64,000 nt of DNA, taken from NCBI GenBank assembly GCA_963422465.1, contig OY730172.1, forward strand, positions 1,922,001 through 1,986,000, in the 5' to 3' direction. A program made the position numbers and the translations under genes. This DNA is from Lichina pygmaea. Lineage: Eukaryota > Ascomycota > Lichinomycetes > Lichinales > Lichinaceae. The stretch's first letter is position 1. Every line of letters begins with the position of its first letter. Positions 25,020 through 45,027 of the stretch are shown piece after piece. The notes beneath the pieces are model-generated. The model was not told the origin of the DNA. It did no database searches and saw nothing but the letters and a program-made list of their open reading frames with translations.

Positions 25020-25211
25020 TGTTGGAGTTGAGCGATCTGCAACGTCATACCACATGACTTACGGAAGGGCGCTAACCCTAGATTGGGAAGAAGGGTGTTC
25101 TCATTTTTCATTATAGACAAATGTCTGAGTACATCCTATTGAATACAAGATCCTATTGTCTTCTAAGTGCCTTGTCATTCTGAAGTGTCACCAACACTGA
25201 TTATCCCAACA
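25020..25211 (+). repeat. Copia 5' LTR (192 bp)
   Basis: TG...CA-bounded repeat of 192 bp. It pairs with the 3' LTR at 42777-42895 plus 45030-45102, also 192 bp once the DNA transposon is removed. The two LTRs differ at about eleven positions, about eight of them CG versus TG or CA. Confidence 0.95.
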
Positions 25212-25375
25212 GGTTATAAGCCCGGGAATTCTGCTGACAAGGTTGAATCAACTGTGAAGAAGTCAAAGAAGAAGAGGAGAAGAAGAGCCTAGAGGAAAAG
25301 GCTGCAAAGAAGGGCCTAGAGGAAAAGGCCATAAGGAAGGGCTAGCCACGACGTTAGCAGAAGGCAAGCCAATAG

Positions 25376-26894
25376 GATGGAAGACAAGAAGGAACAGGGC
25401 AGGAAGGTCCTGCTCCGGGGCCCAGAGAACTATGAAGACTGGGCACAAGTTATCAGGATGCGGCTATTGGCTGCAAGAGTCTGGCACACCGTCCTTGTAG
25501 AGCCAGAAGAGTCAGAGATGAAGCCTGCCCAAACATCAGCAACAGGATCCAAAGATCAACAGATTGAGGCCACAAAGGAGTGGCAGGATATCAAGGCAGA
25601 AGAAGGAAAGGCAGCAGACATCATACTGTTGTCAATCAGTGAATAGCAGCAAAAGCACGTCTGACAGATCAAGCACCCCTACCACATCTGGAAGACCCTG
25701 AAAGGGATCCACAAACAGCTGAACAACAAGAAGCTGCACAACATGATAGTACAGCTGTTTTCAAAGGACCTCAGCCGAAAAATCAAAGAGAGAGGGTTGA
25801 GGATCTGTGTGCTCAATGCTGAAATAGAGAGCTACGACTTGACACTGAAACTGCCTGAAAAGACATTAGTGATCCTGCTCCTAGAGTCGTTGACACCAGA
25901 ATACAACACCATGAAGAAGATCCTTATAACAACAGATCAGATCAACAAACTGGACAAGGTCCTGCAGAAGTTAGCAGGAGAAGAGGCATGGATTGTCAAG
26001 GGAGAAGTGGAGCAGGCACTGGCTGTCTGTAAAGAGGGCAAAGGATGGAGCAAGGGCTGACAAGACAGAAAGGACATGAAGTGCTTCTGGTGTGACTGGA
26101 CAGGGCACAGGAAGTCTGAGTGTTTTGCGACGTGGTCAGCAGATAGAACCCCATTGGAGGACAAACCCCTGGTGAAACCCAGGAAGAGAGGGGAGAAGGC
26201 AAGAGTGGCAATGTGCCAGGAGGATGAGGAAGGAGAGGAGACCTACCTCACTTGCTTTGTACCAGAGCTGGCAATCAGGGAACCACGGACAAGTGATTGG
26301 ATTGTTGACAGTGGTGTGATCCAACACATGAGCTGGGATCACAGGTTATTTGTTAAGTTGAAACCCCTAGGCAGCCACCTGTCAGTAGCCAACAGAGACA
26401 GGCTCGTGATCAAAGGTGTAGGAACTGTACAGACCTGGTTCAACCAGCAGAGTGGTGTTGCGACTATCACAGAAGTGCTGTACATACCTGGATTGACTGC
26501 CAACTTGATGTCAGTTTCAGATCTGGACAAGAAGGGGTTTGAGACAACAAGAAAGAATGGGGAGATAGCCATAATGAAGAATGGCAGAAGAAGGGTAACG
26601 GCCAGAAGAGAAAAGGGCATGTACCACTTGAAGACAAATGGCGAGGTAGTCCTTGTGACAGGACAGGAGAGCCTGACCAGTGGGGCAGGACAGGAGAGTC
26701 CTGCAGACACAAAGAAGACCTGGCACTGGAGGCTAGGGCACGCGAGCAAGACTGTCATGAAGAGGGCAGCACTTACTGGCAAACTTGAAAGGTTTGAGTA
26801 TGATAAAGAGGAAGTTGAGAACTGTGAGGACTGCATATTAGCCAAGATGCAGAAGACTCTCCAGAAGAAGACTGAAGCAACAACAGAGAGAAAG
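25376..26894 (+). pseudogene. Copia gag, CCHC knuckle, protease and pre-integrase
   Basis: Translation gives gag (MEDKKEQGRKVLLRGPENYE...), then after two stops a segment ending IVKGEVEQALAVCKEGKG, then CFWCDWTGHRKSEC (CCHC knuckle, about 26080-26121). The protease region has DWIVDSG (about 26296-26316), and the GAG-pre-integrase motif includes WHWRLGHASKTVMKR and CEDCILAKMQ (26718-26850). Stops occur after LLSISE, after QQKHV and after EGKG; the latter two are TGA where Arg (CGA) would fit. The frame is cut at 26894 by the first gypsy element and resumes at 33396. Confidence 0.9.
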
Positions 26895-27517
26895 TGTTAC
26901 GACCCAGGAGGAACACAGTCTTTATATACTCACAGAAAGCAGCAGACAGGATACTGGACGGAAGTACCAGACAGCGTGGCACGGGAACCAGTCACGTGAC
27001 CGGCGAGACAAACCAGGGGGTGCTTGCCGCAGCATGCATATACGTGAGCAGAGTGAGCAGAGCTCACCCAGCTCACCGCAGCGTGCATGAAAAGTGAGCA
27101 AAGTGAGCAGAGCTCACCCAGCTCACCGCAGCGTGCATGAACAAGTGAGCAAAGTGAGCAGAGCTCACCCAGCTCGCTGCAGCGTGCATGAACTGTGAGC
27201 AAAGTCAGCAGAGCTCACCGATCTCACCGAGTGAGTAAAGTGAGCAGAGCTCACTGTGCTCACGAACTGAGCACTATATAGTCCAGCGATAGTTCCCTTA
27301 TGGAACAATTGTCTTCAACTCATGTTGTGATCCAGACAACTAGATCTACTTCAATACAATCCTTTTGTACGAAGCCGTTGATCAGGTGTCACCACCACCA
27401 CATGCCACCAAACCCCTTCGCACTCCTTGACACTCCTCTCCTGCGAGAACCAACCTGTCTTCCGCCTCTTGCCCTAATCCTATACTCGGATAGGACAGTA
27501 CGGTACAGACCGCAACA
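26895..27517 (+). repeat. Gypsy copy 1, 5' LTR (623 bp) with internal minisatellite
   Basis: Begins TGTTACGACCC and ends CCGCAACA. It contains four degenerate ~50-bp units built around GTGAGCAGAGCTCAC, each ending GCAGCGTGCATGAA (about 27041-27260), followed by ACTATATAGTCC, a probable TATA element at about 27272-27283. Three further LTRs of the same family are in this window. Confidence 0.95.
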
Positions 27518-27535
27518 CTTTGAAGACCCTCAAGA

Positions 27536-28363
27536 ATGAGTACCTCAGGAGCAACCAATCCCAACTTCCCAGATGGAAAGATTAGTGTCGCCAAGCCAGA
27601 CCTGTTCTACGGCGAAAGAAACAAGGTCAACGACTGGCTTATACAACTCCAAGTCTACTTTCAATTCCAACCAGAGACGAAGCTGCCTAAGGAAAAGTGA
27701 TCCCTCTTTGCAACCACTTACATGAGAGGTAATGCTTATTGATGGATCAAGCCCTACATCAACAAACATCTCTCAGGAAACAGAGACCACGACGGCACAA
27801 CAGAATGGATGATAAAATAGACGTGATTCAAGGACAAGATCAAAAGGATCCTTGGACTATCTAACAAAGACAAAGTGGCTATACGAATGATCCAGCACAT
27901 CAAACAATAACGCTCAGCTGCAGAGTATACCACGCAGTTCAAGCAATACTCAGTACTGACTGACTGGGACAACAACACCCTGATGGTCATGTACTGACGT
28001 GGACTCAAGGAAAACATGAAGAATGAAATCACCTTTGATGGACAAGTGGTCAACACACTGGACAAACTCATCGCACAAGCAATCAACATCGATAACAAGC
28101 TATTTGAGCGAGCGATGGAGAAATGCCATGACAGAGGATACAGCCACCCCGCATGGCATGTGAGCAACCACTACAAGCCGCCTAACAAGGCACCGCCACA
28201 TGACCCATATGGCTATGCACCTATGGAACTGGATGCAGTCCACCACAAGGGAAGGCTCACAAAGGGAAGAAACAACAAAAAGGGGAAAGCACTGAAGTGC
28301 TATACCTGTGGCAAGCTAGGTCACATGGTGAAAGACTGTTGTTTAAAGAACAAGGTGCACTGA
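27536..28363 (+). pseudogene. Gypsy copy 1 gag
   Basis: Starts at an ATG 18 bp after the LTR (MSTSGATNPNFPDGKISVAK). It contains the retrotransposon gag region (FKDKIKRILGL..., YTTQFKQYSVLTDW) and ends with the CCHC knuckle CYTCGKLGHMVKDC. Several in-frame TGA/TAA codons interrupt it, for example at 27700, near 27740 and near 27994. At several of these, copy 2 reads CAA or TGG. No intact product is possible. Confidence 0.9.
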
Positions 28364-28616
28364 CAGCAACTTAATACGCTCGACGGAGACTGGAATGTCA
28401 TCGAGCCAGAGGACCCACCAGGAGAGGCTCAGCTATCCCTCGAACAATGGGATAACTACAATCAGACATTGGAAGCAGCCCACCAACTGGCAACATCAGG
28501 AGGCAAGGACCTACCAGAACAGACAGGTCAGGACAAGGGACAGGAGCCCTTAACCACCTCTGATAGGGACTGAGACAAACCCACGTCTATCAAAGAAGAA
28601 ATACTACAAGGAAGCT

Positions 28617-31600
28617 ATGCTTACAGCATGGACCCACGAAATCTACGGCACGGCAAACTACAGTGGAGGTTTTGCACAAAGCACTACTGCACCTACTACG
28701 AACAACTACAAAGGTACGGAGGACATTCACCCTACCACGCCACCTGCCACAAGCATTGGGTCAATTGCGAGAAGGATGCGTGTGAGATCCATCTTTGGGA
28801 CAAACACCAACACACCGCATTCCCCGGGCACACACATGATTGGCACGAACACCTCATGTTCCTACAGCAAGGTAACAACCACAACTGCTACGTCAACAAT
28901 TGGCAGTACTGCCTCAAGCCTGGATGTGGCAAGCATCAGCAAGACAAATTCATGAACAGATTCCTCAGAACTGATGGGAATGGCTAGACCCATTGCCCAG
29001 TCAGTGGAAAGACACTTCAATCAGGAAAAAACTGAACTCCCTTGTCAAGGGGTGACATCGGGAGCTCAACAACATGACCCCTAGCAACACAAAGCACCTG
29101 TGATTGCCTGTGTCACTACACGCCAACACGCCAGTACAGACATACGCACTTGTTGACTCTGGAGCCAGCGGGAACTACATCTCAAGACAACTTTACAACA
29201 CCCTTGGCACTGGAAGGAGACGCAAGCAGTAGCTCTATCAGCTCGCGATAGCAAATGGACAGACAGAGCTAGTCTGCCATGAGATGCAGCCAATGGAAAT
29301 GGTTACTGGACACTATGCTGAAAGGATCCACCTTGATATTGTCAAGTTAGCCACTCAGGATATCTATTTGGGGATGCCTTGGCTAAAGAAGCACAACCCA
29401 GTTGTTAACTGGAGGACAGGAGTACTCATGTTTAGGAACTGCACTAACAACACAGCTTGGACCTGTTACCAGCCGCAGAAGGCGTGGACAGATGAGGGAA
29501 GGAGTCCTCAGTGGAACCTCACTGACAGAAAGGATGACTTTCAAGAGAAGAGGTCTGCCTTGACAGGCACACCCCGGAACCAGGTGGCCAAACAGTCAGA
29601 GATGAAGAGAGAGGAAGTTGTTAACCTTCTGTAGATCCCTGAAGAGTACTGACCTGGGTATGATAACCTCTTTCAGGAAGAGACAACAACAGCAGTGTTG
29701 CCTAAGCACCAACCTTGGGATCATGAGATCAAGTTGCAACCAGGGATGGAGCCAGGATTTGGACCAATTTACCAGTTATCAGAGAAAGAGCTCCAAGTAC
29801 TTCGCGAGTACCTGGAGGAAAACCTGAAAAAGGGTTTCATTCAAGAATCTCAATCGCCAGCAGGATACCCAATACTATTTGCACCAAAGAAAGACAGAAG
29901 TCTTCAACTTTGTGTGGATTACAGGAAACTCAACAACATTACCATCAAGAACTGATATCCGTTGCCAAATGTGAACAAATTGCGAGACAGGATCAGCCAA
30001 GCTACAATCTTTACCAAGCTGGACTTGAAAGGAGCATACAACCTGATACGTATGAAAAAAGGAGAAGAATGGAAGACAGTCTTCAGAACCTGATATAGAC
30101 ACTACGAGTATCTGGTTATGCTATTCAGACTCACGAACACACCAGCAACATGTCAAGCATTGATCAATAACATCATCAGAGCACACCTGGACCAAACAGC
30201 TATCACCTACCTGGACAACATTCTTGTCTACTCGAACACGCAACAGGAACATACCAAACATGTGAAGGATGTTCTACGATGCCTACAAGAGGCAGGGCTC
30301 AAGCTCAACCCAAAGAAATGTGAGTTCAACAAACCGGAAGTTGAATTCCTCAGATACATCATAGGGATTGAAGAGATCAAGATTGACTCTGAGAAAATCA
30401 AAGCAATTTAGCAATGGCCAACACTGACATCAGTTAAGGAAGTACAAGCCTTCCTAGGATTTGCCAACTTCAACTGACAGTTCATTAAGAACTACTCACA
30501 GATGGCAACACCACTGACAGAACTCACAAAGAAGGACGTGGAGTACTGGTGGATGGAGAGACAACAAAAAGTATTCCAACAGCTCAAGGACACTTGCGCC
30601 AAGGAACCAGTTCTCCTCAACTTCAAGACAGGCCAACCAACATGAATCAAGACAGACACTTCAGATCAGGCAGTGGGAGCATGTCTATGCTAACAGGCAG
30701 ATGGCAAGTGGCACCCAGTTGTCTACTACTCACAAAAAATGACACAAGCAGAACAAAACTATGATATCCACAACAAAGAGCTACTGGCAGTCGTCAACGC
30801 ACTCGAACACTGGAGAGTGTACACGGAAAGCAGTTCTGAACTCACTGTTCTCACAGACCACAAAAATCTGACAACGTTCACGATAACCAAGAAGCTGAAC
30901 AGATGGCAAGTCAGATAGGCTGAACTCCTAGGGCAACACAAGTTCAAGATCTTGTACACCCCTGGATGAGACAATGGGAGAGTAGACACACTAAGCTGAC
31001 AAAAAGACTATATGGAAGATGATGAACACCAAGGAATAATCTTACAGCAGGACCAGCAAGGAAACCTGGTGCCTCAACCACAGATCAACAAGCTTACGGC
31101 AGAAGACACTGAAGAACTAATAAGGAACTACCACAATAATCCAGCACATGGTCACCCAGAAATCTCCAAGACTACAGACCTTATCCAACAGGCAGAGAAC
31201 AATGTTATTAACCTCTGACAACATGTCACAAACTACATTAGCAAGTGTCTACTATGCCAGAAAAACAAACATGGAAGACATAAGCTATATGGAGAAGGAC
31301 ATCCGAACACAATACCGAGAGGTCTGTGGGAAGACGTGTCAATAGACTTCATCACAAAGCTACCCAAGTCTAAAGACCCAGTCACAGGAATCACCTACGA
31401 CTTGATTATGGTGATAGTGGACAGATTCACAAAATATCTAATAGCAGTACTATTCAAGGAGACCCACACAGCAGAACAGTTGGGACACCTTTTACTGGAC
31501 AGATTGGTCAGAGACCACGGAGTTCTGATCACGATTATTACAGACAGAGACAAACTCTTCACATCCAACTACTGGAAGACAATCAGTGCAGCCATGGGAA

Positions 31601-32373
31601 CAAAACCCAAAATGTCTACGGCCTATCACCCACGAACTGACAGCCAGACAGAGTGAGCAAACCAAGTCCTGGAGACTTACTTACAGCATTACATCAACCA
31701 GACCCACAGCAATTGGGTACAGTTATTACTGGTGGCACAGCTGGTAATCAACCAGCACAGATCAGACTCAACAAAGGAATCACCATTTTTTGCCAGTTTT
31801 GGATAACATGCGAACATCAGGATACTAAGCAGAGCTTCACCAAACACAGAGAAAGCACTCCAACATGACAAGCTCCTACGACAAACACACACGATGATGA
31901 GGCACTACCTTCAAGAGACCTCAGAAAGAATACAACATCAAATAGACAAGAAATCAAAAATGGCACCTCAGCTAAAGAAGGGGGATAAAGTCTACCTCCT
32001 CACAAGAAATTGGAAAACAAAGAAACCAAAGACAAAGAAACTTGACAACATCAAGGTCAGACTATTTTCAGTCAAAGAAAAAACAGGACCAGTCAACGTC
32101 AAGATACAACTACCAAGGGATGCCAGAGTCCATCCAAATTTTCATATATTGATGATTGAACCAGCCGACCAGAGCACACCCTTGCAGGAAACATTCCATT
32201 ATCAACCTGAAGAAGAACAAGAGTTCAAAGTTGAACAGATCCTGGCTAGAAAAGGTCAGCAATACCTTGTCAAGTGGAAAGGATACCCAGACTCAGAAAA
32301 TACCTGGGAACCACTCAAGAACCTCGTGAACTGCCAGCTTCTTCTGCGACAGTTTCAGCAGGAGCAGGACTGA
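28617..32373 (+). pseudogene. Gypsy copy 1 pol: protease, RT, RNase H, integrase, chromodomain
   Basis: The segments in order are protease VDSGASGNYISRQL (about 29152), RT with [15 protein letters not shown] (about 29908) and TYLDNILVYS (30208), RNase H-type segments ([15 protein letters not shown], about 30770), integrase VSIDFITKLPKS...IVDRFTKYLIAV...TAYHPRTDSQTE (31336-31656), and a chromodomain ILARKGQQYLVKWKGYPDSENTWEPL (about 32240-32320). The chromodomain is expected to direct integration to heterochromatin. Several stops break the frame, mostly TGA where Arg is expected (NRYPLP, LSRQK, LRQHV contexts). The second catalytic Asp of the RT YLDD box is Asn. Confidence 0.92.
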
Positions 32374-32454
32374 ACAGCTCGGCCTGCAAGAGGGATGTGT
32401 CAATAACTGATCAAGTCAAATCCTCGCCATCCGACTCCATCTCTTTCACCAAGC

Positions 32455-32815
32455 ACTGAAGCTTCTGCTTTGCACAGACCTCGGCACCCTCCAACACCTT
32501 TCACTTCCAAGACAGACAAGCCTGCACTGTGGCAAGTTGTTCAAAGAGTGTGTTGCGTGTTGCCTTGTCAGCGGCCACATCCTCACAGAGGTTGTCCCGG
32601 GACATGTTCAGAGATTCCCAGAACACAGAGACACAAGACCTTCCGCACCAAGTGCACGCAGCATATTTCAACTTATCGTCTTCTCCCGGCATCTGGAAGC
32701 ATGGACAACCACGGAGAACACAAAAGTCGCAGGGCGTACGCGAAACAAAACTCTGATCACGGATTTGAGCAGTAAGCTGAGTTCGGCTAACAGTCACACG
32801 TGACTTTGGAGGTAT
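32455..32815 (-). pseudogene. Antisense Cys-rich ORF of gypsy copy 1 (degraded)
   Basis: The counterpart of the intact antisense ORF at 39714-40118. Most of it can be read (TPCDFCVLRGCPCF, GEDDKLKYAACTWCGRSC), but one zinc-ligand-type Cys is Tyr and the frame meets a TAG at TGG/CGA-type sites near 32501. Almost every difference from copy 2 is a CG in copy 2 and a TG or CA here. Confidence 0.7.
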
Positions 32816-32858
32816 GACCAGATTTCATCAAGATGATGAAAGATGGAGAGGAGGATAG

Positions 32859-33395
32859 TGTTACGACCCAGGAGGAACACAGTCTTTATATACTCACAGA
32901 AAGCAGCAGACAGGATACTGGACAGAAGTACCAGACAGCATGGCACGGGAACCAGTCACGTGACCAGCGAGACAAACCAGGGGGTGCTCACCGCAGCGTG
33001 CATGAAAAGTGAGCAAAGTGAGCAGAGCTCACCCAGCTCGCCACAGTGTGCATGAAAAGTGAGCAAAGTGAGCAGAGCTCACCCAGCTTGCCGCAGTGTG
33101 CATGAACTGTGAGCAAAGTGAGCAGAGCTCACTGTGCTCACGAACTGAGCACTATATAGTCTGGCGATAGTTCCCCTATGGAACAATCATCTTCAACTCA
33201 TGTTGTGATCCAGACAACTAGATCTACTTCAATACAATCCTTTTGTACGAAGCTGTTGATCAGGTGTCACCACCACCACATTCCACCAAACCCCTTCGCA
33301 CTCCTTGACACTCCTCTCCTGCGAGAACCAACCCACCTTCCACCTCTCACCCTAATCCTATACTCGGATAGGACAGTACGGTACAGACCGCAACA
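32859..33395 (+). repeat. Gypsy copy 1, 3' LTR (537 bp)
   Basis: Same ends as the other three LTRs but 86 bp shorter than its partner, because the ~50-bp GTGAGC...GCATGAA units are reduced to two plus a terminal part (about 33003-33140). It is preceded by a purine-rich tract (AGATGGAGAGGAGGATAG). Confidence 0.95.
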
Positions 33396-34190
33396 GAAAG
33401 CTCAAACTGGTGCACACAGATGTGTGCAGACCTCTCCAGGATGAAGGGTATAACAGATCACAGTACCTGTTGACAATAATTGATGACTGGACCTGTATGA
33501 CATGGGTTTACCCCATGAAGCTCTGGAGTGAGCTACCAGTTGCTTTTGGCAGCTGGAAAGCCATGGTGGAACAGGAATCTGGTGAGAAGCTGTGCAGGAT
33601 ACAGTGTGACAATGCCAAAGAATACATCAGTCAGTACTTGAAGTGTCTGAAGCTGGAAGGAGTAAGAAAAGAACCCACTGTGCCATACAACCCACAGCAA
33701 AACAGGGTTGCCAAGCAGTATAACTGAACAATTATCAGTCGGGTGAAAGTGATGTTGGCGGACACAGAGCTGCCAATACAGCTGTGGCCTGTAGCAGCCC
33801 AGATGTCAGTGTATCTGGACAACAAGCTGCCACACAGAGACAGGAAGAACTTGCCGGAAGGAGAATGGACAGGACAGACTGTCAACACAGGCCATCTGAG
33901 AGTCTTTGGGTGTGTCACATACATGCATATACTGAAGGAGAAGAGGAAGAAGTTAGATCAATTGGCCTGGAAAGGAGTAATGGTGGGGTACCGGGGTAAT
34001 CACATTTACCTTGTATGGAACCTGGAGACAAAGAAGATTGCAGCTGCAGTGTCTGTGCAATTCATAGAAGAGGTTGTCAGACAACAAGCACAGGTGTGAC
34101 CTAAGGAGAAGGTCAGCATTAAGGGGGGGTGGCCACGGGTCACCTCAGTGCCCAAGCAAACCAGGACAGAGAGACAGGTGCAAGGTGTAC
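33396..34190 (+). pseudogene. Copia integrase segment between the two gypsy insertions
   Basis: Continues the copia frame after gypsy copy 1: LVHTDVCRPL, then YLLTIIDDWTCMTWVYPMK, then IQCDNAKEYIS and VPYNPQQNRVAKQYN, a TGA, then TIISRVKVMLADTELPIQLW and LRVFGCVTYMHI. This is the copia integrase core with its C-terminal extension. Copia integrases normally have D,D and E residues at TDV, DN(A/G)xE and QNGVAE; here the last reads QNRVAK, so the catalytic Glu is lost. The copia frame stops at CTGGT, where gypsy copy 2 entered. Confidence 0.9.
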
Positions 34191-34195
34191 CTGGT

Positions 34196-34820
34196 TGTTA
34201 CAACCCAGGAGGAACACAGTCTTTATATACTCACAGAAAGCAGTAGACAGGATCCTGGACAGAAGTACCAGACAGCGTGACACAGAAACCAGTTACATGA
34301 CCGGTGAGACAAACCAGGGGGTGCTTGCCACAGCATGCATATACGTGAGCAGAGTGAGCAGAGCTCACCCAGCTCACCGCAGCGTGCATGAAAAGTGAGC
34401 AAAGTGAGCAGAGCTCACCCAGCTCACCGCAGCGTGCATGAACAAGTGAGCAAAGTGAGCAGAGCTCACCCAGCTTGCTGCAGCGTGCATGAACTGTGAG
34501 CAAAGTCAGCAGAGCTCACCGATCTCACCGAGTGAGCAAAGTGAGCAGAGCTCACTGTGCTCACAAACTGAGCACTATATAGTCCAGCAATAGTTCCCTT
34601 ATGGAACAATTGTCTTCAACTCATGTTGTGATCCAGACAACTAGATCTACTTCAATACAATCCTTTTTGTATAAAGCTATTGATCAGGTGTCACCACCAC
34701 CACATTCCACCAAACCCCTTCACACTCCTTGACACTCCTCTCCTGCAAGAACCAAACTGCCTTCCACATCTCACCCTTAATCCTATACTTGGTTAGGACA
34801 GCATAGTACAGACTACAACA
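34196..34820 (+). repeat. Gypsy copy 2, 5' LTR (625 bp)
   Basis: Begins TGTTACAACCC and ends CTACAACA, with the four-unit GTGAGC minisatellite at about 34343-34560 and ACTATATAGTCC near 34573. The first line and the end carry transitions relative to the 3' LTR (40162-40786). Confidence 0.95.
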
Positions 34821-34838
34821 CTTTGAAGACCCTCAAGG

Positions 34839-35666
34839 ATGAGTACCTCAGGAGCAACCAACCCCAACTTCCCAGATGGAAAGATTAGCGTCACCAAGCC
34901 AGACCTGTTCTACAGTGAAAGAAACAAGATCAACGACTGGCTTATACAACTCCAAGTCTACTTTCAATTCTAACCAGAGACAAAGCTGCCTAAGGAGAAG
35001 TGGCCCCTCTTCGCAACCACTTACATGAGAGGCAATGCTTATTGATAGATCAAGCCCTACGTCAACAAACATCTCTCAGGAAACAGATACCACGATAGTA
35101 TGTCAGAATAGATGACAAAATAGACATGATTCAAGGATAAGATCAAAAGGATCCTTGGACTATCTAACAAAGACAAAGTGGCTATACGAATGATCCAGCA
35201 CATCAAACAACAACACTCAGCCGCAGAGTACACTACACAGTTCAAACAATACTCAGTACTGACTGACTGGGACAACAACGCCCTGATAGTCATGTACCAA
35301 CATGGACTCAAGGAAAACATGAAGGATGAAATCACCTTCAACAGACAAGTGGTTGACACACTGGACAAACTCATCGCACAAGCAATCAACATCAACAACA
35401 AATTATTCAAGCAAGTGATGGAGAAACACCACAACAGAGGATACAGCTACCCTGCATGGCATGTGAGCAACCACTACAAGCTGCCTAACAAGACACTGCC
35501 ACATGACCTATATGGCTATGCACCCATAGAACTGGATGCAGTCCACCACAAGGGAAGGTTCACGAAGGGAAGGAACAACAAGAAGGGGAAAGCACTGAAG
35601 TGCTATACCTGTGGCAAGCTAGGCCACATGGTGAGAGACTGTTGTTCAAAGAACAAGGTGCACTGA
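34839..35666 (+). pseudogene. Gypsy copy 2 gag
   Basis: Same start as copy 1 gag (ATG 18 bp after the LTR). The 3' part is open for 162 codons (35178-35666), reading MAIRMIQHIKQQHSAAEYTTQF... to the CCHC knuckle CYTCGKLGHMVRDC. The 5' part has stops at the TYMRGNAY-WIKPYVNK region and nearby. Copy 2 keeps Gln codons where copy 1 has TGA or TAA. Confidence 0.88.
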
Positions 35667-35919
35667 CAGCAACTAAATACACTTGACGGAGACTGGAATG
35701 TCATCAAGCCAGAGAACCCACCAGGAGAGGCTCAGCTATCCCTCAAACAATAGGATAACTACAATCAGATATTGGAAGCAGTCCACCAACTGGCAACATC
35801 AGGAGGCAAGGACCTACCAGAACAGACAGGTCAGGACAAGGGACAGGAGCCCTTAACCACCTCTGATAGGGACTGAGACAAACCCACGTCTATCAAAGAA
35901 GAAATACCACAAGGAAGCT

Positions 35920-38900
35920 ATGCTTACAGCATGGACCCACAAAACCTATGGCACAGTGAACTACAGTGGAGGTTTTGCACAAAGCACCACTGCACCTACC
36001 ACAAACAACTACAAAGGTACAGAGAACATTCACCCTACCACACCAACTGCTATAAGCATTGGGTCAATTGTGAGAAGGATGTGTGTGAGATCTATCTTTG
36101 GGACAAACGCCAACACACCGTATTCCCCGGGCACACACATGATTGGCATGAACACCTCATGTTCCTACAGCAAGGCAACAACCACAACTGCTACATCAAC
36201 AATTAGCAGTACTGCCTCAAGCCTGGATATGACAAGCATCAGCAAGATAAATTCATGAACAGATTCCTCAGAACTGATGGGAATAGCTAGACCTATTGCC
36301 CAGTCAGTGGAAAGACACTTCAATCAGGAAAAGACTGAACTCCCTTGTCAAGGGGTGACATCAGGAGCTCAACAACATGACCCCTAGCAACACAAAGCAC
36401 CTGCAATTGCCTGTGTCACTACACGCCAACACACCAGTACAGACATACACACTTGTTGACTCTGGAGCCAGTGGAAACTATATTTCAAGACAACTTTACA
36501 ACACCCTCAACACTGGAAGGAGACGCAAGCAGCAGCTCTATCAGCTCACGATGGCAAATAGACAGACAGAGCTAGTCTGCCATGAGACGCAGCCAATGGA
36601 AATAGTTACTGGACACCATGCTGAAAGGATCTACCTTGATATTGTTGAGTTGGCCACTCAGGATATCTATTTAAGGATGCCTTGGCTAAAGAAGCACAAC
36701 CCAGTTGTTAACTGGAGGACAGGAGTACTCACATTTAGGAACTGCACTAACAACACAGCTCAGACCTGTTACCAGCCACAGAAGGTGTGGATAGATGAGG
36801 GAAGGAGTCCTCAGTGGAACCTCACTGACAGAAAGGACAACTCTCAAGAGAAGAGATCCACCTTGACAGGTACACCCCGGAACCAGGTAGCCAAACAGTC
36901 AGAGATGAAGAGAGAGGAAGTTGTTAACTCTCTGGAGATCCCTGAAGAGTACTGACCTGGGTATGATAACCTCTTTCAGGAAGAGATAACAACAGCAGTG
37001 TTGCCTAAGCACCAACCTTGGGATTATGAGATCAAGTTGCAACCAGGGACAGAGCCAGGATTTGGACCAATTTACCAGTTATCAGAGAAAGAGCTCCAAG
37101 TACTTTGTGAGTACCTGGAGGAAAACCTGAAAAAAGGTTTCATTCAAGAATCTCAATCACCAGCAGGATACCCGATACTATTTGCACCAAAGAAAAACAG
37201 AAGTCTTCGACTTTGTGTGGACTACAGGAAACTCAACAACATTACCATCAAGAACTGATATCTGTTGCCAAATACAAACGAATTGTGAGACAGGATCAGC
37301 CAAGCTACAATCTTCACCAAGCTGGACTTGAAAGGAGCATACAACCTGATACACATGAAAGAAGGAGAAGAATAGAAGACAGCCTTCAGAACCTGATACA
37401 GACACTACAAGTATCTGGTTATGCCATTCGGACTTACGAACGCACCAGCAACATGTCAAGCATTGATCAACAACATCATCAGAGTACACCTGGACCAAAC
37501 AGCTATCAACTACTTGGACAACATTCTTGTCTACTTGAACACGCAACAGGAATATACCAAACATGTGAAGGATGTTCTACAATGCCTACAAAAGGCAGAG
37601 CTCAAGCTCAACCCAAAGAAATGCGAGTTTAACAAACTGGAAGTTGAATTCCTCAGATACATCATAGGAATCAAAGGGATCAAGATTGACCCTGAGAAAA
37701 CCAAAGTGATTCAACAATGGCCAACACTGACATCAGTTAAGGAAGTACAAGCCTTCCTAGGATTTGCCAACTTTAACTAACAGTTCATCAAGAACTACTC
37801 CCAGATGGCAACACCACTGACAGAACTCACAAAGAAGGACGTGGAGTACCAGTGGACGGAGAGATAACAAAAAGTATTCTAATAGCTCAAGAACACTTGC
37901 GCCAAAGAACCAGTTCTCCTCAACTTCAAGACAGGCCAACCGACACAAATTAAAACAGACGCTTCAGACCAAGCAGTGGGAGCATGTCTATGCCAACAGG
38001 CAGACAACAAGTGGTACCCAGTTGCCTACTACTCACAGAAGATGACACAAGCGGAACAGAACTATGATATCCACAACAAAGAGCTACTGGCAGTCATCAA
38101 CGCACTCGAACACTGGAGAGTGTACGCGGAAAGCAGTTCTGAACTCACCATTCTCACAGACCACAAGAATCTGACAACGTTCACAACAACCAAGAAGCTG
38201 AACAGACAGCAAGTCAGATAGGCTGAACTCCTAGGGCAACACAAGTTTAAGATCTTGTACACCCCTGGACAAGACAACAGGAGAGTAGACGCACTAAGCT
38301 GACAAAAAGACCACATGGAAGATGATGAACACCAAGGAACAATCTTACAGTAGGACCAGCAAGGGAACCTGGTGCCTTGACCACAGATCAACAAGCTCAC
38401 GGCAGAAGACACTGAAGAATTAATAAGAAACTACCACGACAATCCAGCACATAGTCACCCAGGAATCTCCAAGACCACAGACCTTATCCAACGGGCAGGG
38501 AACAATGTCATCAACCTCTGACAACATGTCACAAACTACATCAGCAAATGTCTACTGTGCCAGAAGAACAAACACAGAAGATACAAGCCATATGGAGAAG
38601 GACATCCGAACACGATACCAAGAGGCTTGTGGGAAGATGTGTCAATAGACTTTATCACAAAGCTACCCAAGTTCAAAGACCCAGTCACAGGAATCACCTA
38701 CAACTCAATTATGGTGATAGTGGACAGATTCACAAAATATCTAATAGCAGTACTATTCAAGGAGACCCACACAGTAGAACAGTTGGGACACCTCTTACTG
38801 GACAGATTGGTCAGAGACCACGGAGTTCCAATCACGATCATTACAGACAGAGACAAACTCTTCACATCCAACTACTGGAAGACAATCAGTGTAGCCATGG

Positions 38901-39709
38901 GAACAAAACCCAAAATATCTACGGCCTATCACCCACGAACCGACAGCCAGACGGAGCAAGCAAACCAAGTCCTGGAGACTTACTTACGGTATTACATCAA
39001 CAAGACCCACAGCAATTGGGTACAGTTATTACCGGTGGCACAGCTGGCAATCAACCAGCACAGATCAGACTCAACAAAGGAATCGCCATTTTTTGCCAAT
39101 TTTGGACAACATGCGAACATCGGGATGCCAAGCAGAGCTTCACCAAACACGGAAAAAGTACTCTAACATGACAAGCTCCTACGACAAACGCACACGATGA
39201 TAAGGCACTACCTTCAAGAGACCTCAGAAAGAATGTAACGTCAAATGGACAAGAAATCAAAAATGGCACCTCAGCTAAAGAAGGGGGATAAAGTCTACCT
39301 CCTCACAAGAAATTGGAAAACGAAAAAACCAAAGACAAAGAAACTTGACAACATCAAGGTCAGACTATTTTCAGTCGAAGAGAAAACAGGACCAGTCAAC
39401 GTCAAGATACGACTACCAAGGGATGCCAGAGTCCATCCAAACTTTCACATATCGATGATTGAACCAGCCGACCAGAGCACACCCTTGCAGGAAACATTTC
39501 ATTACCAACCCGAAGAAGAACAAGAGTTCGAAGTTGAATAGATCCTGGCTAGGAAAGGTCAGCAATACCTTGTCAAGTGGAAAGGATACCCAGACTCGGA
39601 AAATACCTGGGAACCACTCAAGAACCTCGCGAACTGCCAGCTTCTTCTGCGACAGTTTCGGCAGGAGCAGGACCGAACAGCTCGGCCTGCAGGAGGGACG
39701 CGTCAATGA
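35920..39709 (+). pseudogene. Gypsy copy 2 pol with chromodomain
   Basis: Contains a 192-codon open protease segment (36377-36955, LVDSGASGNYISRQL), RT pieces (LCVDYRKLN near 37213; NYLDNILVYLN at 37510, again Asn for the second Asp), RNase H pieces ([26 protein letters not shown] at 37976-38221), an open integrase segment (38627-39166, VDRFTKYLIAV...TAYHPRTDSQTEQANQVLETYL), and a chromodomain (QQYLVKWKGYPDSENTWEPL) entered after a TAG at 39538. Pol ends ...GGTRQ with TGA at 39707-39709; the same end in copy 1 stops earlier at a TGA in place of CGA. Confidence 0.92.
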
Positions 39710-39713
39710 CTGA

Positions 39714-40118
39714 TCAAGTCAAATCCTCGCCATCCGACTCCATCTCTTTCACCAAGCACTGAAGCTTCTGCCTCGCACGGACCTCAGCACCCTCCAACAC
39801 CTTTCGCTTCCGAGACAGACGAGCCTGCACCGTGGCAAGTTGTTCAAAGAGTGCGTCGCGCGTTGCCTCGTCAGCGGCCACATCCTCACGGAGGTTGTCC
39901 CAGGACATGTTCAGAGATTCCCAGGACACAGAGACACAAGACCTTCCGCGCCGAGTGCACGCAGCACATTTCAACTTATCGTCTTCTCCCGGTATCTGGA
40001 AGCACGGACGACCACGGAGAACACAAAAGTCGCAGGGCGTACGCGAAACAAAACCCCGATCGCGGATTTGAGCAGCAAGCTGAGTTCGGCTAACAGTCGC
40101 ACGTGACTTTGGAGGCAT
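39714..40118 (-). CDS. Antisense accessory ORF of the gypsy element: Zn-cluster-like coiled protein
   Basis: An intact 134-codon ORF from ATG at 40118 to TGA at 39714, antisense to the element and tail-to-tail with pol (pol stop ends at 39709). It begins with a basic segment (MPPKSRATVSRTQLAAQIRD), then has six or more cysteines in CDFCVLRGRPC...CAACTRRGRSC, resembling a binuclear zinc-cluster or Cys-rich DNA-binding patch. A probably coiled-coil C-terminal half follows (DEATRDALFEQLATVQARLSRKRKVLEGAEVRARQKL) and an acidic end (MESDGEDLT). I recall similar hypothetical proteins in fungal genomes but know no function. It lies between the chromodomain and the 3' LTR, so it would need its own promoter, perhaps the antisense side of the LTR. 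The 5' end is within 45 bp of the LTR. Confidence 0.6.
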   Translation of the reverse strand: MPPKSRATVSRTQLAAQIRDRGFVSRTPCDFCVLRGRPCFQIPGEDDKLKCAACTRRGRSCVSVSWESLNMSWDNLREDVAADEATRDALFEQLATVQARLSRKRKVLEGAEVRARQKLQCLVKEMESDGEDLT

Positions 40119-40161
40119 GACCAGATTTCATCGAGATGATGAAAGATGGAGAGGAGGATAG

Positions 40162-40786
40162 TGTTACGACCCAGGAGGAACACAGTCTTTATATACTCAC
40201 AGAAAGCAGCAGACAGGATACTGGACAGAAGTACCAGACAGCGTGACACGGGAACCAGTCACGTGACCGGCGAGACAAACCAGGGGGTGCTCGCCGCAGC
40301 ATGCATATGCGTGAGCAGAGTGAGCAGAGCTCACCCAGCTCGCCGCAGCGTGCATGAAAAGTGAGCAAAGTGAGCAGAGCTCACCCAGCTCGCCGCAGCG
40401 TGCATGAACAAGTGAGCAAAGTGAGCAGAGCTCACCCAGCTTACCGCAGCGTGCATGAACCGTGAGCAAAGTCAGCAGAGCTCACCGATCTCACCGAGTG
40501 AGCAAAGTGAGCAGAGCTCACTGTGCTCACGAACTGAGCACTATATAGTCCGGCGATAGTTCCCTTATGGAACGATCGTCTTCAACTCATGTTGTGATCC
40601 AGACAACTAGATCTACTTCAATACAATCCTTTTTGTACGAAGCCATTGATCAGGTGTCACCACCACCACGTTCCACCAAACCCCTTCGCGCTCCTTGACA
40701 CTCCTCTCCTGCGAGAACCAACCCGCCTTCCGCATCTCGCCCTTAATCCTATACTTGGTTAGGACGGCACGGTACGGACCGCAACA
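40162..40786 (+). repeat. Gypsy copy 2, 3' LTR (625 bp)
   Basis: Begins TGTTACGACCC and ends CCGCAACA. It keeps the highest number of CG dinucleotides of the four LTRs by eye, including in the GTGAGC minisatellite (CTCGCCGCAGCG units, about 40310-40520) and at ATATAGTCCGG. Confidence 0.95.
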
Positions 40787-42678
40787 CTGGTTGGCCGGAA
40801 GAGCCAGAAGAAGAAGACTGTGACAAAGAGTCAGTAAGATACGACACAGAAGGGACAGAAGACTCACCTTGGCAGCCCTGACAAGAAGTGGCTGAAGAAC
40901 CAGCTGAAGCACCTGAGGAGGGAGCTCAGGAATCAAACAAGGCAGAAGAAAGAGGTCCACAAGAGAACAGGGCCACAGGCAAGGCCACAAAGGAAGAGTC
41001 TGAAAGGGCACAGGAAACAGAGCCAGCGAGGTGGAGTACGTGGATCCGCAAGGCAACAGGGAAGGTGAAGGAAGGTGCCTTCGCAACAGAGGAGCAAGGT
41101 GCTGTGGCACCCGTACCAATGATTCCGGGGTTGTACAAAGAAGTGGTGAACAACACAGTGTTCAGACATGAATGGAGGAAAGCTACTGAGAAGGAATTAA
41201 GTCAGTTAGCAAGCTTCAAGTTGTGGAGACCTGAAGACTTACCCACTGGAAAGAACCTGGTTAGTTCCAGGTGGGTATTTGACCTGAAGAAGAATCAGCA
41301 AGGCAAGGTCACCAAATTCAAAGCAAGACTGGTTGCATGGGGCTTCTCACAAAAGAAAGGAATTGATTACATCAAGATGTTTGCCCTGACTACGAAGTAC
41401 AACTCCCTGCGGATGCTGTTAGCAATTGCCGCAACGGAGGACCTTGAGATCCACCAGGGTGACATTGAGAGCACTTACCTGGCTGCAGATCTTGACAAGG
41501 AGATCTTCATGGAACCACCGGAAGGGGTGGAGACCAAAGGGAAAGTCTGTAGGGTGCTGAGAGGACTGTACAGACTGAAGCAGTCAGCCCAGCTCTGGAA
41601 TAGGAGACTTACCAGTTTCCTGTTGAAACGCAGTTTCCGACAGCTGTCAACAGACTTCAGTATCCTCACGAAGGGGAATATGAAGGAAGGACTCATGATA
41701 CTGATCTATGTGGATAACTTGCTATTTATCAGTCCACATATGGAGCAGATCAACTGGGTAAAGAAGCTGTTAGCCAGTGAGTTCAGGATCAAAGACCTTG
41801 GTGAGGCAAAGACAATCCTCAACATGCAGGTAACAAGGGACCGGAAGAAGAGACAACTCACCTTGTCACAACCCAGATACACCAGGAAGGTTCTCGAGAG
41901 GTTTGGCATGACAGATTGCCACCCAGTCGCAACACCAATAGAACCTGGAGCAATAAAGGTGTTAGACAGGGTGTATAAGAAGGTGAAAGACTCACCGGTG
42001 GAATCAAGAGCGGACAAGACTTGGTATCAAGAGGCAATTGGGTCACTAATGCACTTGATGGTCAGTACAAGACCAGACATTGTGTATGCAGTGGGAAGAC
42101 TCAGCTGTTATTGCCAAAATCCAACAGAGGTGCATTGGAAGGCCGCAAAACAAGTGTTCCGATACCTGAAAGGATCAACTGAGCGAGGGATTTGATTTGG
42201 GAAGGACAAAGGACTTACAGGAGTGTCAGACAGCAGTTTCGCAGATGACCTGATCAAAAGGAAGTTGACTGCAGCATACGTTTTCCTGCTGAACGGAGGT
42301 GCAATCACCTGGGCAAGCAAAAAGACCCCCGTTGTCACCCTATCGAGTACGGAGGCCGAGTATATGGCCACAACGGCAGCAGCACAAGAAGAAGCCTGGG
42401 TATCGCAACAGTTAGCGGAGCTTGGGATAAAGCAGACGGGACCCACAAGGATTGACATGGACAATCAATCGACAATCCAGATGATGAAGAACCCGGAGTT
42501 CCACGCACGGACCAAGCACATCGATGTCCAATACCACTATATTCGTGAGCAGGTTGCCTCGGATAAAGTACAGGTTGAATACGTGCCTTCTGCGGAATTG
42601 CTCGCGGACGAGCTCACGAAGCCACTCAGCGCTCAGGCACGGAAGGAGAAGCTGCAGGGACTCGGTCTGACACAGTAG
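40787..42678 (+). pseudogene. Copia reverse transcriptase and RNase H
   Basis: After gypsy copy 2 the frame resumes in a Glu/Ala-rich linker and then the copia RT: FRHEWRKATEKELSQL, NLVSSRWVFDLKKN, FKARLVAWGFSQKKGIDY, LEIHQGDIESTYL and VCRVLRGLYRLKQSAQLW. The catalytic box reads IYVDNLLF (41704-41727), with Asn for the second Asp. RNase H follows a TGA after TERGI (42195): GVSDSSFADD, WASKKTPVVTLSSTEAEYMA and RTKHIDVQYHYIRE. It ends at TAG 42676. Three stops or catalytic changes are CpG-type transitions. Confidence 0.93.
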
Positions 42679-42895
42679 ATGTCAGCTAATGGAAGCAGCA
42701 GCGGACGAGGACGGTGGGCCCACATACTCACCTTGGGGAGATAAATTGCAAAGTGGGGATGCAGCTCGAGGGGGGGTGTTGGAGTTGAGTGATCTGCAAC
42801 GTCATACCACGTGACTTACAGAAGGGCGCTAACCCTAGATTGGGAAGAAGGGTTTTTTCATTTTTCATTGTAGACGAATGTCCGAGTACATCCTA

Positions 42896-45027
42896 CCGTA
42901 GTCGATCACGTGACGCTCGTTATCACCCAACGCTCGGTTGAGCGACCAAGCACCCCCTCAAGGGAAAGTTGAATAACTTAATAGATATTTGTCGGGACTA
43001 TCTCAAACTTGGATATATGATAGAATAGCATGTATAGAAGAGATAGTGAACAATAGAAGTCTAGTGTACAAAGCGTGATGGCTTCTTCAAGACTCGACCA
43101 CGTGAAGTCAGTTTAGGAGCCTCCTCCTCAGAGCTCCACTTATCTTCGTCATCTTCAATGATAGGAGCTTCCTTGCTTGGTGGAGAAGACTCCTCAACAG
43201 TCTCTGAGCCTCCCTGGACCTTCTCCTTTCCTGCTGCCTGCTTTTTGGCCTCCCTATTAGCTTTCACAATTGCAGCTTTTTGGCCTTCTCTTCTCTTGCC
43301 ACTTGACAAGCAATTTCTCGGTCAGTCTGTTGCTCTTCCTTCTCCAATTGCTTTTGCGTACGCTCCCCCTTCTTCCTATCCTTCTCCTCCTTCTTCTGCT
43401 TCTCCTCCTGCTCCTTTTCAGCATTTCTTGCAAGTGCAGCTTGGATTTTCGTTGGAGTGAAGATCTGAGGCTTATTATCCTCCTCTCCAAGCAGATTAAG
43501 CCGCTTTCCTCGCTGTTTCTTCTTCTTCTCCATTAATAGAGCCTGTGTTAGCTGTTCCACTGTAGCTTTATAGAGATCTCGCTCTGTGATAACTTTTGCA
43601 AAGCCATCACTGATCTGCTCAAGCCCTTCTGAGGAAGTAGCTTTCTTCTGCGCTCGAATTGCATAACGGAAAGATTTGAGTGTAACAGGAGTCTTAGCAC
43701 AGATAGGGGCAGGTTTCTGAGGTGTATGAGAAGGTGGATTAAGAACATCAAGTACTCGAGAAGCATTCAGGGGAAAGATACCAGTAGCCTCAAAAGCTGA
43801 CTGAATATTCTCAGTTGTAAAGCTTTTTTGCCACGCAGAGTAGAAGATAGGCCAGAAGATGTGTTTTGTGATAGATGTAATGCCTAAGCTGTTACGCATC
43901 ACAACATCAAGCTGTTGGGAATAGTGTTGTGCTAGGGGAGAGAAAAGACCAACATCAAGGGGCTGTAATCGATGGGTAGTATGAGGAGGTAGTACAAGAA
44001 TAATAATACTATTTGCATCAGCGTATTCAAGGAAAGGAAGATTAACATGGCTAGAATGGCCATCAACAATAAGAAGACGACGACGGCTTCGTCCTGTCTG
44101 AGTTCTGGTAGACTTGTTGAAGACTTTCTCTAACCATTGCAGACCTAGATCATTATTAGTCCACCCTTTCTCAGAGACAGCAAAATATGCCTCAGTATTG
44201 TTCAGATCTTGCACCCAGGTATCAAGAAGGTCATGAGATTGGCCTTGGTAGATAAGAGTTGGAGGGATATATGATCCAGTTGCTCGAACACATGCAACTA
44301 GAGTCACAAACTCTCGACTCCCATCTTGATTAACACCTAGAATCCTGCCAGCTTTCCGTGCCTCCTTGTTGACAATTCGTCGTGTGGCATGCCCCTGGCC
44401 AATGAGGAAGCCTTTCTCGTCAACATTGTAGATGTTATCCGCTGTGATATGGTATTTCTCAATAGCGTCATCTAGCTATATGAAGATTAGCAAGAATTCA
44501 TCAATAATACTGGGGATAGTAATACCAGCTGGTAAAAAGCCTTGATTTGGGCTATAGATTCTGCCCATTTACGCTTCTTATCTATAGGCTTCAGGTAGAC
44601 ACTTTCAATAGTGTCCAAATGACGTTGCACAAAGCGTTGCGTCCAGCACTTCCCAAGAGGTCTTCTGGCAATACGTTCTGCCAAGTCTCGGACAACCTGA
44701 GGTGTCATTGGCCATCCCTTAAGGCTCAGAGCACTGATACGCTCTACCAGAACTGCTTCCTGGCTATCGGAGAGAGCTTTGACGATCGTGGAGTTGACTT
44801 CTTTTCGGGAGGTGCTCTTCCCCTGGTGGCGACGAGAAAGTGCATGACGACTGATATCATGCTTTACAGCAGTTGCCGTATAGTTGATTCGATCCGCTAG
44901 GTCCAGCTCAGCAAGAGCATCACTCATTCGGTCGTCGTATGACCTCTCCATGGCGATATAAAAAAAAGGTCAAAATCTACAAATACCGAGCGTTGGGTGA
45001 TAACGAGCGTCACGTGATCGACTACGG
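42896..45027 (-). mobile_element. Fot1/pogo-like DNA transposon with ~42-bp perfect TIRs
   Basis: A 2132-bp element flanked by TA (42894-42895 and 45028-45029). The ends read CCGTAGTCGATCACGTGACG and onward, identical as inverted repeats over about 42 bp. The target is the copia 3' LTR; the intact 5' LTR shows the empty site with a single TA. It carries one transposase gene on the minus strand. The perfect TIRs and nearly intact coding sequence mark it as the youngest insertion in the nest. Confidence 0.95.
43264..44951 (-). CDS. Pogo/Fot1-family DDE transposase
   Basis: Exons 44951..44526 and 44475..43264, with a 50-bp GTATTA...TTGCTAATC...ATAG intron, give 545 aa. A psq-type HTH is at ~25-60 (AVKHDISRHALSRRH) and a CENP-B-type HTH at ~65-130 (LVERISALSLKGWPMTP, LGKCWTQRFVQRHLD). 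The DDE_1 domain holds the three acidic residues YNVDEKGF, LLIVDGHSSH and HRLQPLDVGLF. The Lys/Glu/Gln-rich coiled C-terminus ends at 43264. A second frame (43309-43061) continues the expected Fot1-type C-terminus (KAAIVKANREAKKQ...), so a one-base change in an A5 run near 43282 has probably truncated ~70 residues. The catalytic core is intact. Confidence 0.93.

What the first reader, a model, noticed from the sequence alone, without database searches (positions are those of the whole stretch)
26895..40786. CpG-directed hypermutation of retroelements, with complementary outcomes in the two gypsy copies
Aligning gypsy copy 1 (28016-28140) with copy 2 (35325-35445), almost all differences are TG in one copy against CA in the other, or CG retained in one. 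Examples are TTTGATGGA versus TTCAACAGA, GTCAACACA versus GTTGACACA, TGCCATGAC versus CACCACAAC, and TACTGACGT versus TACCAACAT. Each resolves to an inferred ancestral CG. The antisense-ORF region (32481-32580 versus 39780-39880) differs almost only at sites where copy 2 still has CG. The copia LTR pair (11 differences, about 8 CpG) and the two LINE copies show the same. Classic Neurospora-type RIP prefers CpA; a CpG preference with little other divergence is unusual for an ascomycete.
Basis: partly seen in the sequence, partly recalled or inferred. Interest (0 to 1): 0.78.

Follow-up and report, generated by a model that had tools for sequence, protein, structure and literature searches.

The report
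CpG-first hypermutation of fungal retrotransposons
Copies of a jumping gene in this fungal genome have lost about half of their CG letter pairs to C-to-T changes, apparently after they landed; this is a CG-targeting form of repeat decay already reported in a few other fungi, recorded here in unusual detail.

Summary
Over 6,501 aligned bases the two gypsy copies differ by 420 transitions and 15 transversions; C/T differences hit 49% of CpG cytosines against 4-10% elsewhere. "Almost all CpG" holds for the quoted stretches; element-wide, CpG-class events are 179 of 401 and CpA is a clear second target.

In 31 copies (2,498 columns) none of 126 CpG columns is intact in every copy and half of the CpG cells are no longer CG. 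CpG cytosines were hit about 770 times more often than sites were hit by transversion, and 15 times more than CpA. Hits at different sites are uncorrelated across copies, which points to many separate hits after insertion. At single CpGs one strand is often favoured, predictably from neighbouring bases (CCG hot, ACG cold).

The genome encodes DIM-2-, RID- and DNMT5-like methyltransferases. Best reading: methylation-coupled C-to-T mutation of silenced repeats, CpG first, CpA second. CpG-type decay is already reported for Uncinocarpus reesii and Aspergillus elements, so this is a new member of a known kind. Repeat-induction, methylation and the enzyme were not tested.

The parts
25020..25138 (+). 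copia-type element, 5' LTR core (partner 42777-42895)
   Evidence: 93% identical direct repeat; spectrum
25139..26894 (+). copia internal part 1 (Pol_BBD, GAG-pre-integrase), cut by gypsy copy 1
   Evidence: Pfam PF22936, PF13976 on 26061-26996
26890..26894 (+). target-site duplication of gypsy copy 1 (GAAAG; partner 33396-33400)
   Evidence: sequence
26895..33395 (+). gypsy copy 1, LTRs 26895-27517 and 32859-33395; 63% of scored CpG sites mutated
33401..34190 (+). copia internal part 2 (integrase core, SH3), between the two gypsy insertions
   Evidence: PF00665 on 33356-33724 (this frame starts inside the gypsy LTR) and PF25597 on 33728-34096
34191..34195 (+). target-site duplication of gypsy copy 2 (CTGGT; partner 40787-40791)
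   Evidence: sequence
34196..40786 (+). gypsy copy 2, LTRs 34196-34820 and 40162-40786; 84% of CpG sites mutated in the 2.5-kb part, much less towards the 3' end
   Evidence: RVT_1, rve (30.0 bits, just under its cut-off of 32.6) and protease pieces
40792..42776 (+). copia internal part 3 (reverse transcriptase RVT_2)
   Evidence: PF07727 on 40882-42192
42777..42895 (+). copia 3' LTR core

Best explanation
The likely source is cytosine methylation of silenced repeats (de novo by the DIM-2-like or RID-like enzyme, CG upkeep by the DNMT5-like enzyme) with deamination of methylcytosine. Shown: C-to-T type, CpG preference, independence of hits between copies, strand-specific context, near-absence of double hits, and the three genes. 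Inferred: that the sites are methylated, which enzyme is responsible, that silencing rather than DNA pairing selects the targets, and the order CpG then CpA.
For: Spectrum in 31 copies: 49.7% of CpG-class cells mutated, against CpA 2.3%, CpC 1.4%, CpT 0.7%, all transversions 0.045%. TA seen in 21 cells against 227 expected if the two cytosines of a CpG were hit independently, so a hit CpG is no longer a strong target. No correlation between CpG columns at any distance: mean r2 0.031-0.035 against 0.033 for independence. No strand runs within 30 bases (z 0.5 and -0.15) and a continuous range of erosion, 24-84%, which suggest many rounds. Choice of strand is repeatable (split-half r 0.78) and predicted by context in held-out sites (r 0.54, sign right in 119 of 149). 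Non-gypsy sequence beside the copies has CpG O/E 0.15 pooled over 23 flanks. DIM-2-, RID- and DNMT5-like genes with catalytic motifs.
Against: No methylation data. The CpG-to-transversion ratio (about 770) is far above the roughly 30 that I recall for passive deamination in mammals, and one-strand hot spots are not what symmetric CG maintenance alone predicts. The review PMC7862722 (passage) reports no CG preference in the methylation of U. reesii, although its repeats are CpG-decayed, so methylation preference and CpG decay need not go together. The two LTRs of copy 1 are more alike than expected if all change came after insertion (0.29 differing at CpG sites; 1 of 19 other copies is closer), while those of copy 2 are not (0.65; 15 of 19 closer). 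A weak excess of same-strand neighbours exists at 30-80 bases (z 1.7 in 31 copies, 2.7 in 29) and between adjacent hits (0.569 vs 0.554, reached by 18 of 1000 shuffles). Similarity between copies varies more than column shuffles give (variance 0.0033 vs 0.0018, shuffles not keeping copy totals). CpA load does not track CpG erosion (rho 0.22, p 0.22; 0.07 in 29 copies), CpC does (rho 0.52, p 0.003); transversions do not.
Confidence: 0.55

Rival explanations
1. RIP in the strict sense: before meiosis, duplicated DNA is recognised by homology and a RID enzyme with CpG (then CpA) preference mutates the copies, repeated over many sexual cycles.
For: RID-like gene with intact-looking catalytic motif; its one in-frame stop lies in a plausible GT-AG intron. 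Rate far above background and second preference CpA. CpG decay sits in repeat-rich stretches of the window while gene DNA keeps O/E about 1.1. In U. reesii the review links CA and TG increase to RID and RIP (passage of PMC7862722).
Against: Few-cycle RIP should, as I recall it, leave strand runs and clustered hits; no clustering was seen and at most weak strand concordance. Copy-number dependence and a length threshold could not be tested because the genome server stopped answering.
Confidence: 0.22
2. Passive decay: ordinary spontaneous deamination of symmetrically methylated CpG, as in vertebrates, with no defence function.
For: CpG-specific, continuous, mostly even over the copy length (28 of 31 copies have regional p above 0.001; two of these 28 lie at 0.016 and 0.023), near-absence of TA.
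Against: CpG hits are about 770 times transversions per site; mean hazards range from 0.814 (CCGA) to 0.081 (ACGC); 29 of 92 well-hit columns show hits on one strand only. The contrasting vertebrate figures are recalled, not from a call.
Confidence: 0.18
3. The CpG differences are old variants of the source elements, shared by descent among copies rather than made after insertion.
For: Some columns are nearly fixed for CA or TG; the LTRs of copy 1 resemble each other, though the closest other LTRs (L038, L041, L042 among the nearest) suggest that retained CG drives part of such likeness.
Against: No linkage between CpG columns even within 20 bases (91 pairs, mean r2 0.035); 77 columns hold CG, CA and TG together; LTRs of copy 2 differ at 26 of 40 CpG sites.
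Confidence: 0.04

Closest known systems
RIP of Neurospora crassa (RID-dependent, CpA)
   Same: C-to-T in repeats, RID-like gene present
   Different: CpG hit about 15 times more than CpA; in the CpG-poor flanks GC is 0.45, TpA/ApT 0.84 and (CpA+TpG)/(ApC+GpT) 1.44, so the usual CpA-based RIP indices would not flag them (thresholds recalled)
CpG-type repeat mutation in Uncinocarpus reesii and CpG>CpA in Aspergillus nidulans MATE elements
   Same: CpG as main target in a filamentous ascomycete, CpA second in MATE; the review table lists one Dim-2, one RID and one DNMT5 gene for U. reesii (passages of PMC7862722, PMC4165359, PMC2621366)
   Different: Only passages were read; no strand-specific context or copy-independence analysis was seen in them
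Tuber melanosporum TE methylation and CpG>CpA signature
   Same: CpG then CpA signature with RID and Dim-2 (PMC4352252, passages); CG-preferring methylation of TEs (PMC4165359, passages); DNMT5 listed (PMC7862722)
   Different: PMC4165359 itself found no CG-to-TG enrichment in Tuber; here half of the CpGs are gone in the sampled copies
Zymoseptoria tritici Dim2-dependent mitotic mutator
   Same: C-to-T in silenced repeats over many divisions; Dnmt5 and RID genes present (passages of PMC8016269)
   Different: There over 98% of C-to-T events were at CpA and CG was not targeted although most methylated sites are CG; here CpG is the main target
Microbotryum TpCpG-type mutation (basidiomycete)
   Same: CpG target with a 5' base preference
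   Different: There the preferred 5' base is T and only a Masc2-type Dnmt1 was found (PMC4352252, passages); here 5' C is hottest (mean hazard 0.66, T 0.47, G 0.39, A 0.22) and DIM-2- and RID-like genes are present

Membership tests
RIP (strict) | C:G to T:A transitions, in repeated DNA | tested here: met
   31 copies: 31 transversions in 69,440 non-CpG cells, C-to-T dominant
RIP (strict) | CpA is the preferred target | tested here: not met
   CpG about 15 times CpA per cytosine
RIP (strict) | RID gene present | tested here: met
   PF00145 on two exons with SPPCQ motif; a GT-AG intron covers the stop. Assignment to RID rests on recalled motifs; the PDB search gave only general methyltransferases
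RIP (strict) | Depends on sequence duplication and occurs before meiosis | not testable with these tools
   Copy-number searches did not complete (and repeats of 54); timing needs crosses
CpG-type repeat mutation of ascomycetes (U. reesii, A. nidulans MATE) | CpG preferred, CpA second, in repeats | tested here: met
CpG-type repeat mutation of ascomycetes (U. reesii, A. nidulans MATE) | Host is an ascomycete | tested here: inconclusive
   Genome unnamed; a DIM-2-like plus a RID-like gene is the usual set of Pezizomycotina (PMC7862722, passages)
Methylation-coupled deamination | 5mC at the mutated sites | not testable with these tools
   No bisulfite data
Methylation-coupled deamination | Cytosine methyltransferases for de novo and CG maintenance methylation | tested here: met
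   Match to PDB 9baq, labelled DNA (cytosine-5-)-methyltransferase (E 6.5e-181), and to 7r76, labelled Rad8 (E 9.4e-263); that these entries are DIM-2 and DNMT5 is recalled; expression unknown

The most novel reading that the evidence does not exclude
An active, context-reading CpG mutator: an enzyme (RID-, DIM-2- or DNMT5-linked) that picks one strand of a symmetric CpG by its flanks (YCGW hot, ACGC cold) and converts C to T at rates well beyond chemical deamination, acting through ordinary growth rather than in one pre-meiotic burst.
Probability: 0.25. Interest if true: 0.7.

Novelty: new member of a known kind. Interest (0 to 1): 0.42.

Why it matters
The gypsy family is caught half-way: 31 copies with about half their CpGs gone and almost no transversions give a readable record of one mutator's sequence preference. 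Usual RIP indices built on CpA would score these sequences as not RIPped, so CpG-type genomes may be undercounted. The genome adds a case with DIM-2-, RID- and DNMT5-like genes together, as listed for U. reesii and Tuber, and the strand-specific context makes the enzyme question testable.

Tried and rejected
Coding constraint as the cause of strand bias: looked at by codon phase and stops. All 31 copies carry stops in every frame, and CA exceeds TG in 8 of 9 phase classes, so selection was set aside in favour of context; codon phase was not modelled together with context. Strand bias by flank symmetry: in 62 sites with palindromic neighbours CA still exceeds TG (594 against 400), so a residual orientation bias remains unexplained. 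Spatial clustering of hits in a copy: none in the 2.5-kb part (lags 1-10, |z|<1), but g2, L017 and L031 have patches of low mutation, perhaps gene conversion. Organism name: not found; two guesses at the genus gave no lead. One paper search was aimed at Coccidioides CpG loss; the review then opened (PMC6141143, passages) held nothing on it, so that precedent, recalled by me, is not used. Genome-wide tables for copia and other families, copy number of the CpG-poor flanks, and ten more 3' LTRs were planned and not obtained.

Limits of the sample: the 30 fetched gypsy loci are the best 30 of 40 scored among 988 first-look candidates, ranked by similarity to copy 1, so heavily eroded copies are probably under-sampled. 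One of the 30 is copy 1 itself (L015); with copy 2 from the window this gives 31 copies. The non-CpG excess of copies 1 and 2 (CpA 18 and 34 against 3-13 in the other 29; T-to-C 10 and 13 against 2-9) may partly reflect their distance from the other copies. The context and polarity calls use the commonest state per column. In the LTR test 20 of 31 5' LTRs passed the length and N filter. Dropped: seven flanks that match about 30 or more gypsy stretches, matches under 150 bases, under 85% or over 99.9% identity, and further pieces of a pair already listed.

Full report
Setting. The window lies at contig C4, 1922001-1986000, of an unnamed 32.47-Mb genome in 8 contigs. A copia-type element (LTR cores 25020-25138 and 42777-42895; domains) is split by two gypsy insertions in the same orientation: copy 1 at 26895-33395 with target duplication GAAAG, and copy 2 at 34196-40786 with CTGGT.

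Observation. Aligned over 6,501 bases the copies differ by 420 transitions and 15 transversions. C/T differences by 3' neighbour per cytosine: CpG 145 of 295, CpA 114 of 1,083, CpC 38 of 611, CpT 38 of 928, plus 34 CA-against-TG pairs. CpG against non-CpG: odds ratio 12.4, p 9e-69; CpA against CpC plus CpT: odds ratio 2.3, p 1e-7. The quoted stretches are fair examples (9 of 13 and 9 of 9 CpG-class), but element-wide CpG-class events are 179 of 401.

Family-wide spectrum. Thirty-one copies (30 fetched, one of them copy 1, plus copy 2 from the window) were compared column by column over 2,498 ungapped positions. Of 126 CpG-class columns none is CG in every copy; cells are CG 1,964, TG 688, CA 1,230, TA 21, other 3. 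Allowing for saturation a CpG cytosine took 0.343 hits, against 0.0233 for CpA, 0.0142 for CpC, 0.0071 for CpT and 0.00045 transversions per site. Columns in which one copy alone differs give a stricter background: T-to-C 35 in 1,270 sites, CpT-to-TpT 14 in 343, CpC-to-TpC 34 in 297, CpA-to-TpA 69 in 432. So CpT is near background, CpC and CpA are a few-fold above it and, setting the CpG hits against that T-to-C background, CpG is some hundreds-fold above it. Part of the non-CpG excess may come from columns that were CpG before any sampled copy.

Timing. If the mutations were inherited from source elements, neighbouring sites would be linked. Mean r2 after removing row and column effects is 0.031-0.035 at every distance class from 1 to 2,500 bases, against 0.033 expected for independence. 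The two LTRs of copy 2 differ at 26 of 40 CpG sites; with LTRs identical at insertion (established knowledge) this change is later. Copy 1 argues the other way in part: 10 of 35, lower than for 18 of 19 other copies; its 3' LTR is nearest to L038, its own 5' LTR, L042 and L041, so shared retained CG may explain some of this. Within single elements, CpG-class differences between the LTRs are 15 of 18 (copy 1) and 24 of 38 (copy 2). Erosion per copy runs from 24% to 84% and is overdispersed (sd 0.108 against 0.045 binomial, 29 copies). It shows no correlation with transversions, whose counts (0-4 per copy) are too small to date copies.

Mechanism clues. (1) A CpG hit once is rarely hit again: TA 21 against 227 expected. 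(2) Choice of strand at a CpG is strongly site-specific: among 92 columns with at least 10 mutated copies, 29 have no copy hit on the other strand. A flank model trained on the 2.5-kb part predicts per-cytosine rates elsewhere in the element (r 0.585; strand sign right in 119 of 149; largest |r| of 200 shuffles of the asymmetry 0.22). Mean competing-risk hazards: CCG-A 0.81, CCG-T 0.72, TCG-T 0.69, ACG-A 0.15, ACG-C 0.08. From memory, spontaneous methyl-CpG deamination in human tissue favours ACG, the opposite order. (3) A 5' C preference also appears at CpA and CpC (CCA 4.2%, CCC 3.4% against ACC 0.4%) but not at CpT (CCT 0.3%); this hints at one agent for several contexts, yet CpA load per copy does not track CpG erosion while CpC load does. 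(4) No strand runs within 30 bases, a weak excess at 30-80 bases (z 1.7; 2.7 without copies 1 and 2), and regional patches in 3 of 31 copies at p<0.001 (g2, L017, L031): mostly separate hits, not one pass. (5) The 5' flanks of the insertions have a median CpG O/E of 0.08 (31 flanks, seven of them gypsy-like and one, L040, masked and counted as 0), or 0.15 pooled over the 23 others. Of eight flank pairs compared, L018-L039 and L018-L024 differ chiefly at CpA (12 and 13, against 4 and 3 CpG-class); L024-L039 has 7 CpG-class and 6 CpA; L026-L034 has no CpG-class difference, 19 other transitions and 6 transversions; g1-L035 has 4 and 4; L021-L006 has one difference; L031 against the window's DDE element has 7 CpG-class of 12; L035 against the window's copia has 16 of 34.

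Machinery. Three PF00145 genes were found. L012 1696-5934 matches PDB 9baq, labelled DNA (cytosine-5-)-methyltransferase (E 6.5e-181; read here as DIM-2-like). L014 392-4414 (minus) has methylase and SNF2 domains and matches 7r76, labelled Rad8 (E 9.4e-263; read here as DNMT5-like); exons beyond this frame were not searched for. L013 3192-6248 (minus) is RID/Masc1-like by its SPPCQ...AHT and EET motifs (family meaning recalled); the single in-frame TAG falls in a GTAGGT...CCTAG intron. The PCQ motif, or its DNMT5-type counterpart, can be read in all three.

Literature. PMC4352252 (abstract and passages) ties CpG signatures to methylation followed by deamination and lists Tuber with CpG then CpA. 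PMC2621366 (passages) reports CpG then CpA in A. nidulans MATE elements. PMC4165359 (passages) cites U. reesii as predicted to be RIPped at CG and finds no such enrichment in Tuber. PMC8016269 (passages) shows a Dim2-dependent mitotic CpA mutator in Z. tritici that does not target CG. PMC7862722 (passages) lists Dim-2, RID and DNMT5 for U. reesii and Tuber; it reports CG-preferring methylation in Tuber but none in U. reesii, where it links raised CA and TG to RID and RIP. PMC8091789 (passages) suggests spontaneous deamination in V. dahliae. PMC12543289 (abstract and two sections) concludes that RIP-like defences share a CpA preference, which this genome does not fit. One search for papers combining RIP, CpG, trinucleotide, strand and ascomycetes returned four, none opened.

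Verdict. A CpG-first, CpA-second, C-to-T-dominated decay of repeats, largely after insertion and by many separate hits, in a genome with DIM-2-, RID- and DNMT5-like genes. The kind is known; the strand-specific context and the clean separation from background are the interesting additions. Whether it is RIP in the strict sense is open.

Noticed in passing
34196-40786, 3' end from about 39000: Gypsy copy 2 is uneven: its 5' LTR keeps CG at 4 of 40 scored sites, its 3' LTR at 28 of 40. Fetched copies L017 and L031 have low-mutation patches too; gene conversion or recombination with a fresher copy is possible.
   Followed up: partly
39714-40127 (-): An antisense ORF near the 3' end of gypsy copy 2 has a cysteine pattern like a small zinc finger (CDFC...RGRPC...CAACTRRGRSC); no Pfam match.
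   Followed up: partly
17101-18100: A 1-kb CpG-poor island (O/E 0-0.34 per 200 bases, GC about 0.44) between normal gene DNA, perhaps an old repeat remnant.
   Followed up: no
27044-27243, 33009-33157, 34345-34544, 40311-40510: Tandem units of about 50 bases inside the gypsy LTRs (GTGAGCA..GAGCTCACC); copy 1's 3' LTR is shorter than its 5' LTR (537 against 623 bases).
   Followed up: no
43264-44475 and 46862-47566: Two DDE_1 transposase remnants beside the copia element.
   Followed up: no
26895-27517 and 34196-34820: The 5' LTRs of both window copies (623 and 625 bases) are longer than those of 16 of 18 other copies that passed the filter (594-606), a possible LTR subtype.
   Followed up: no
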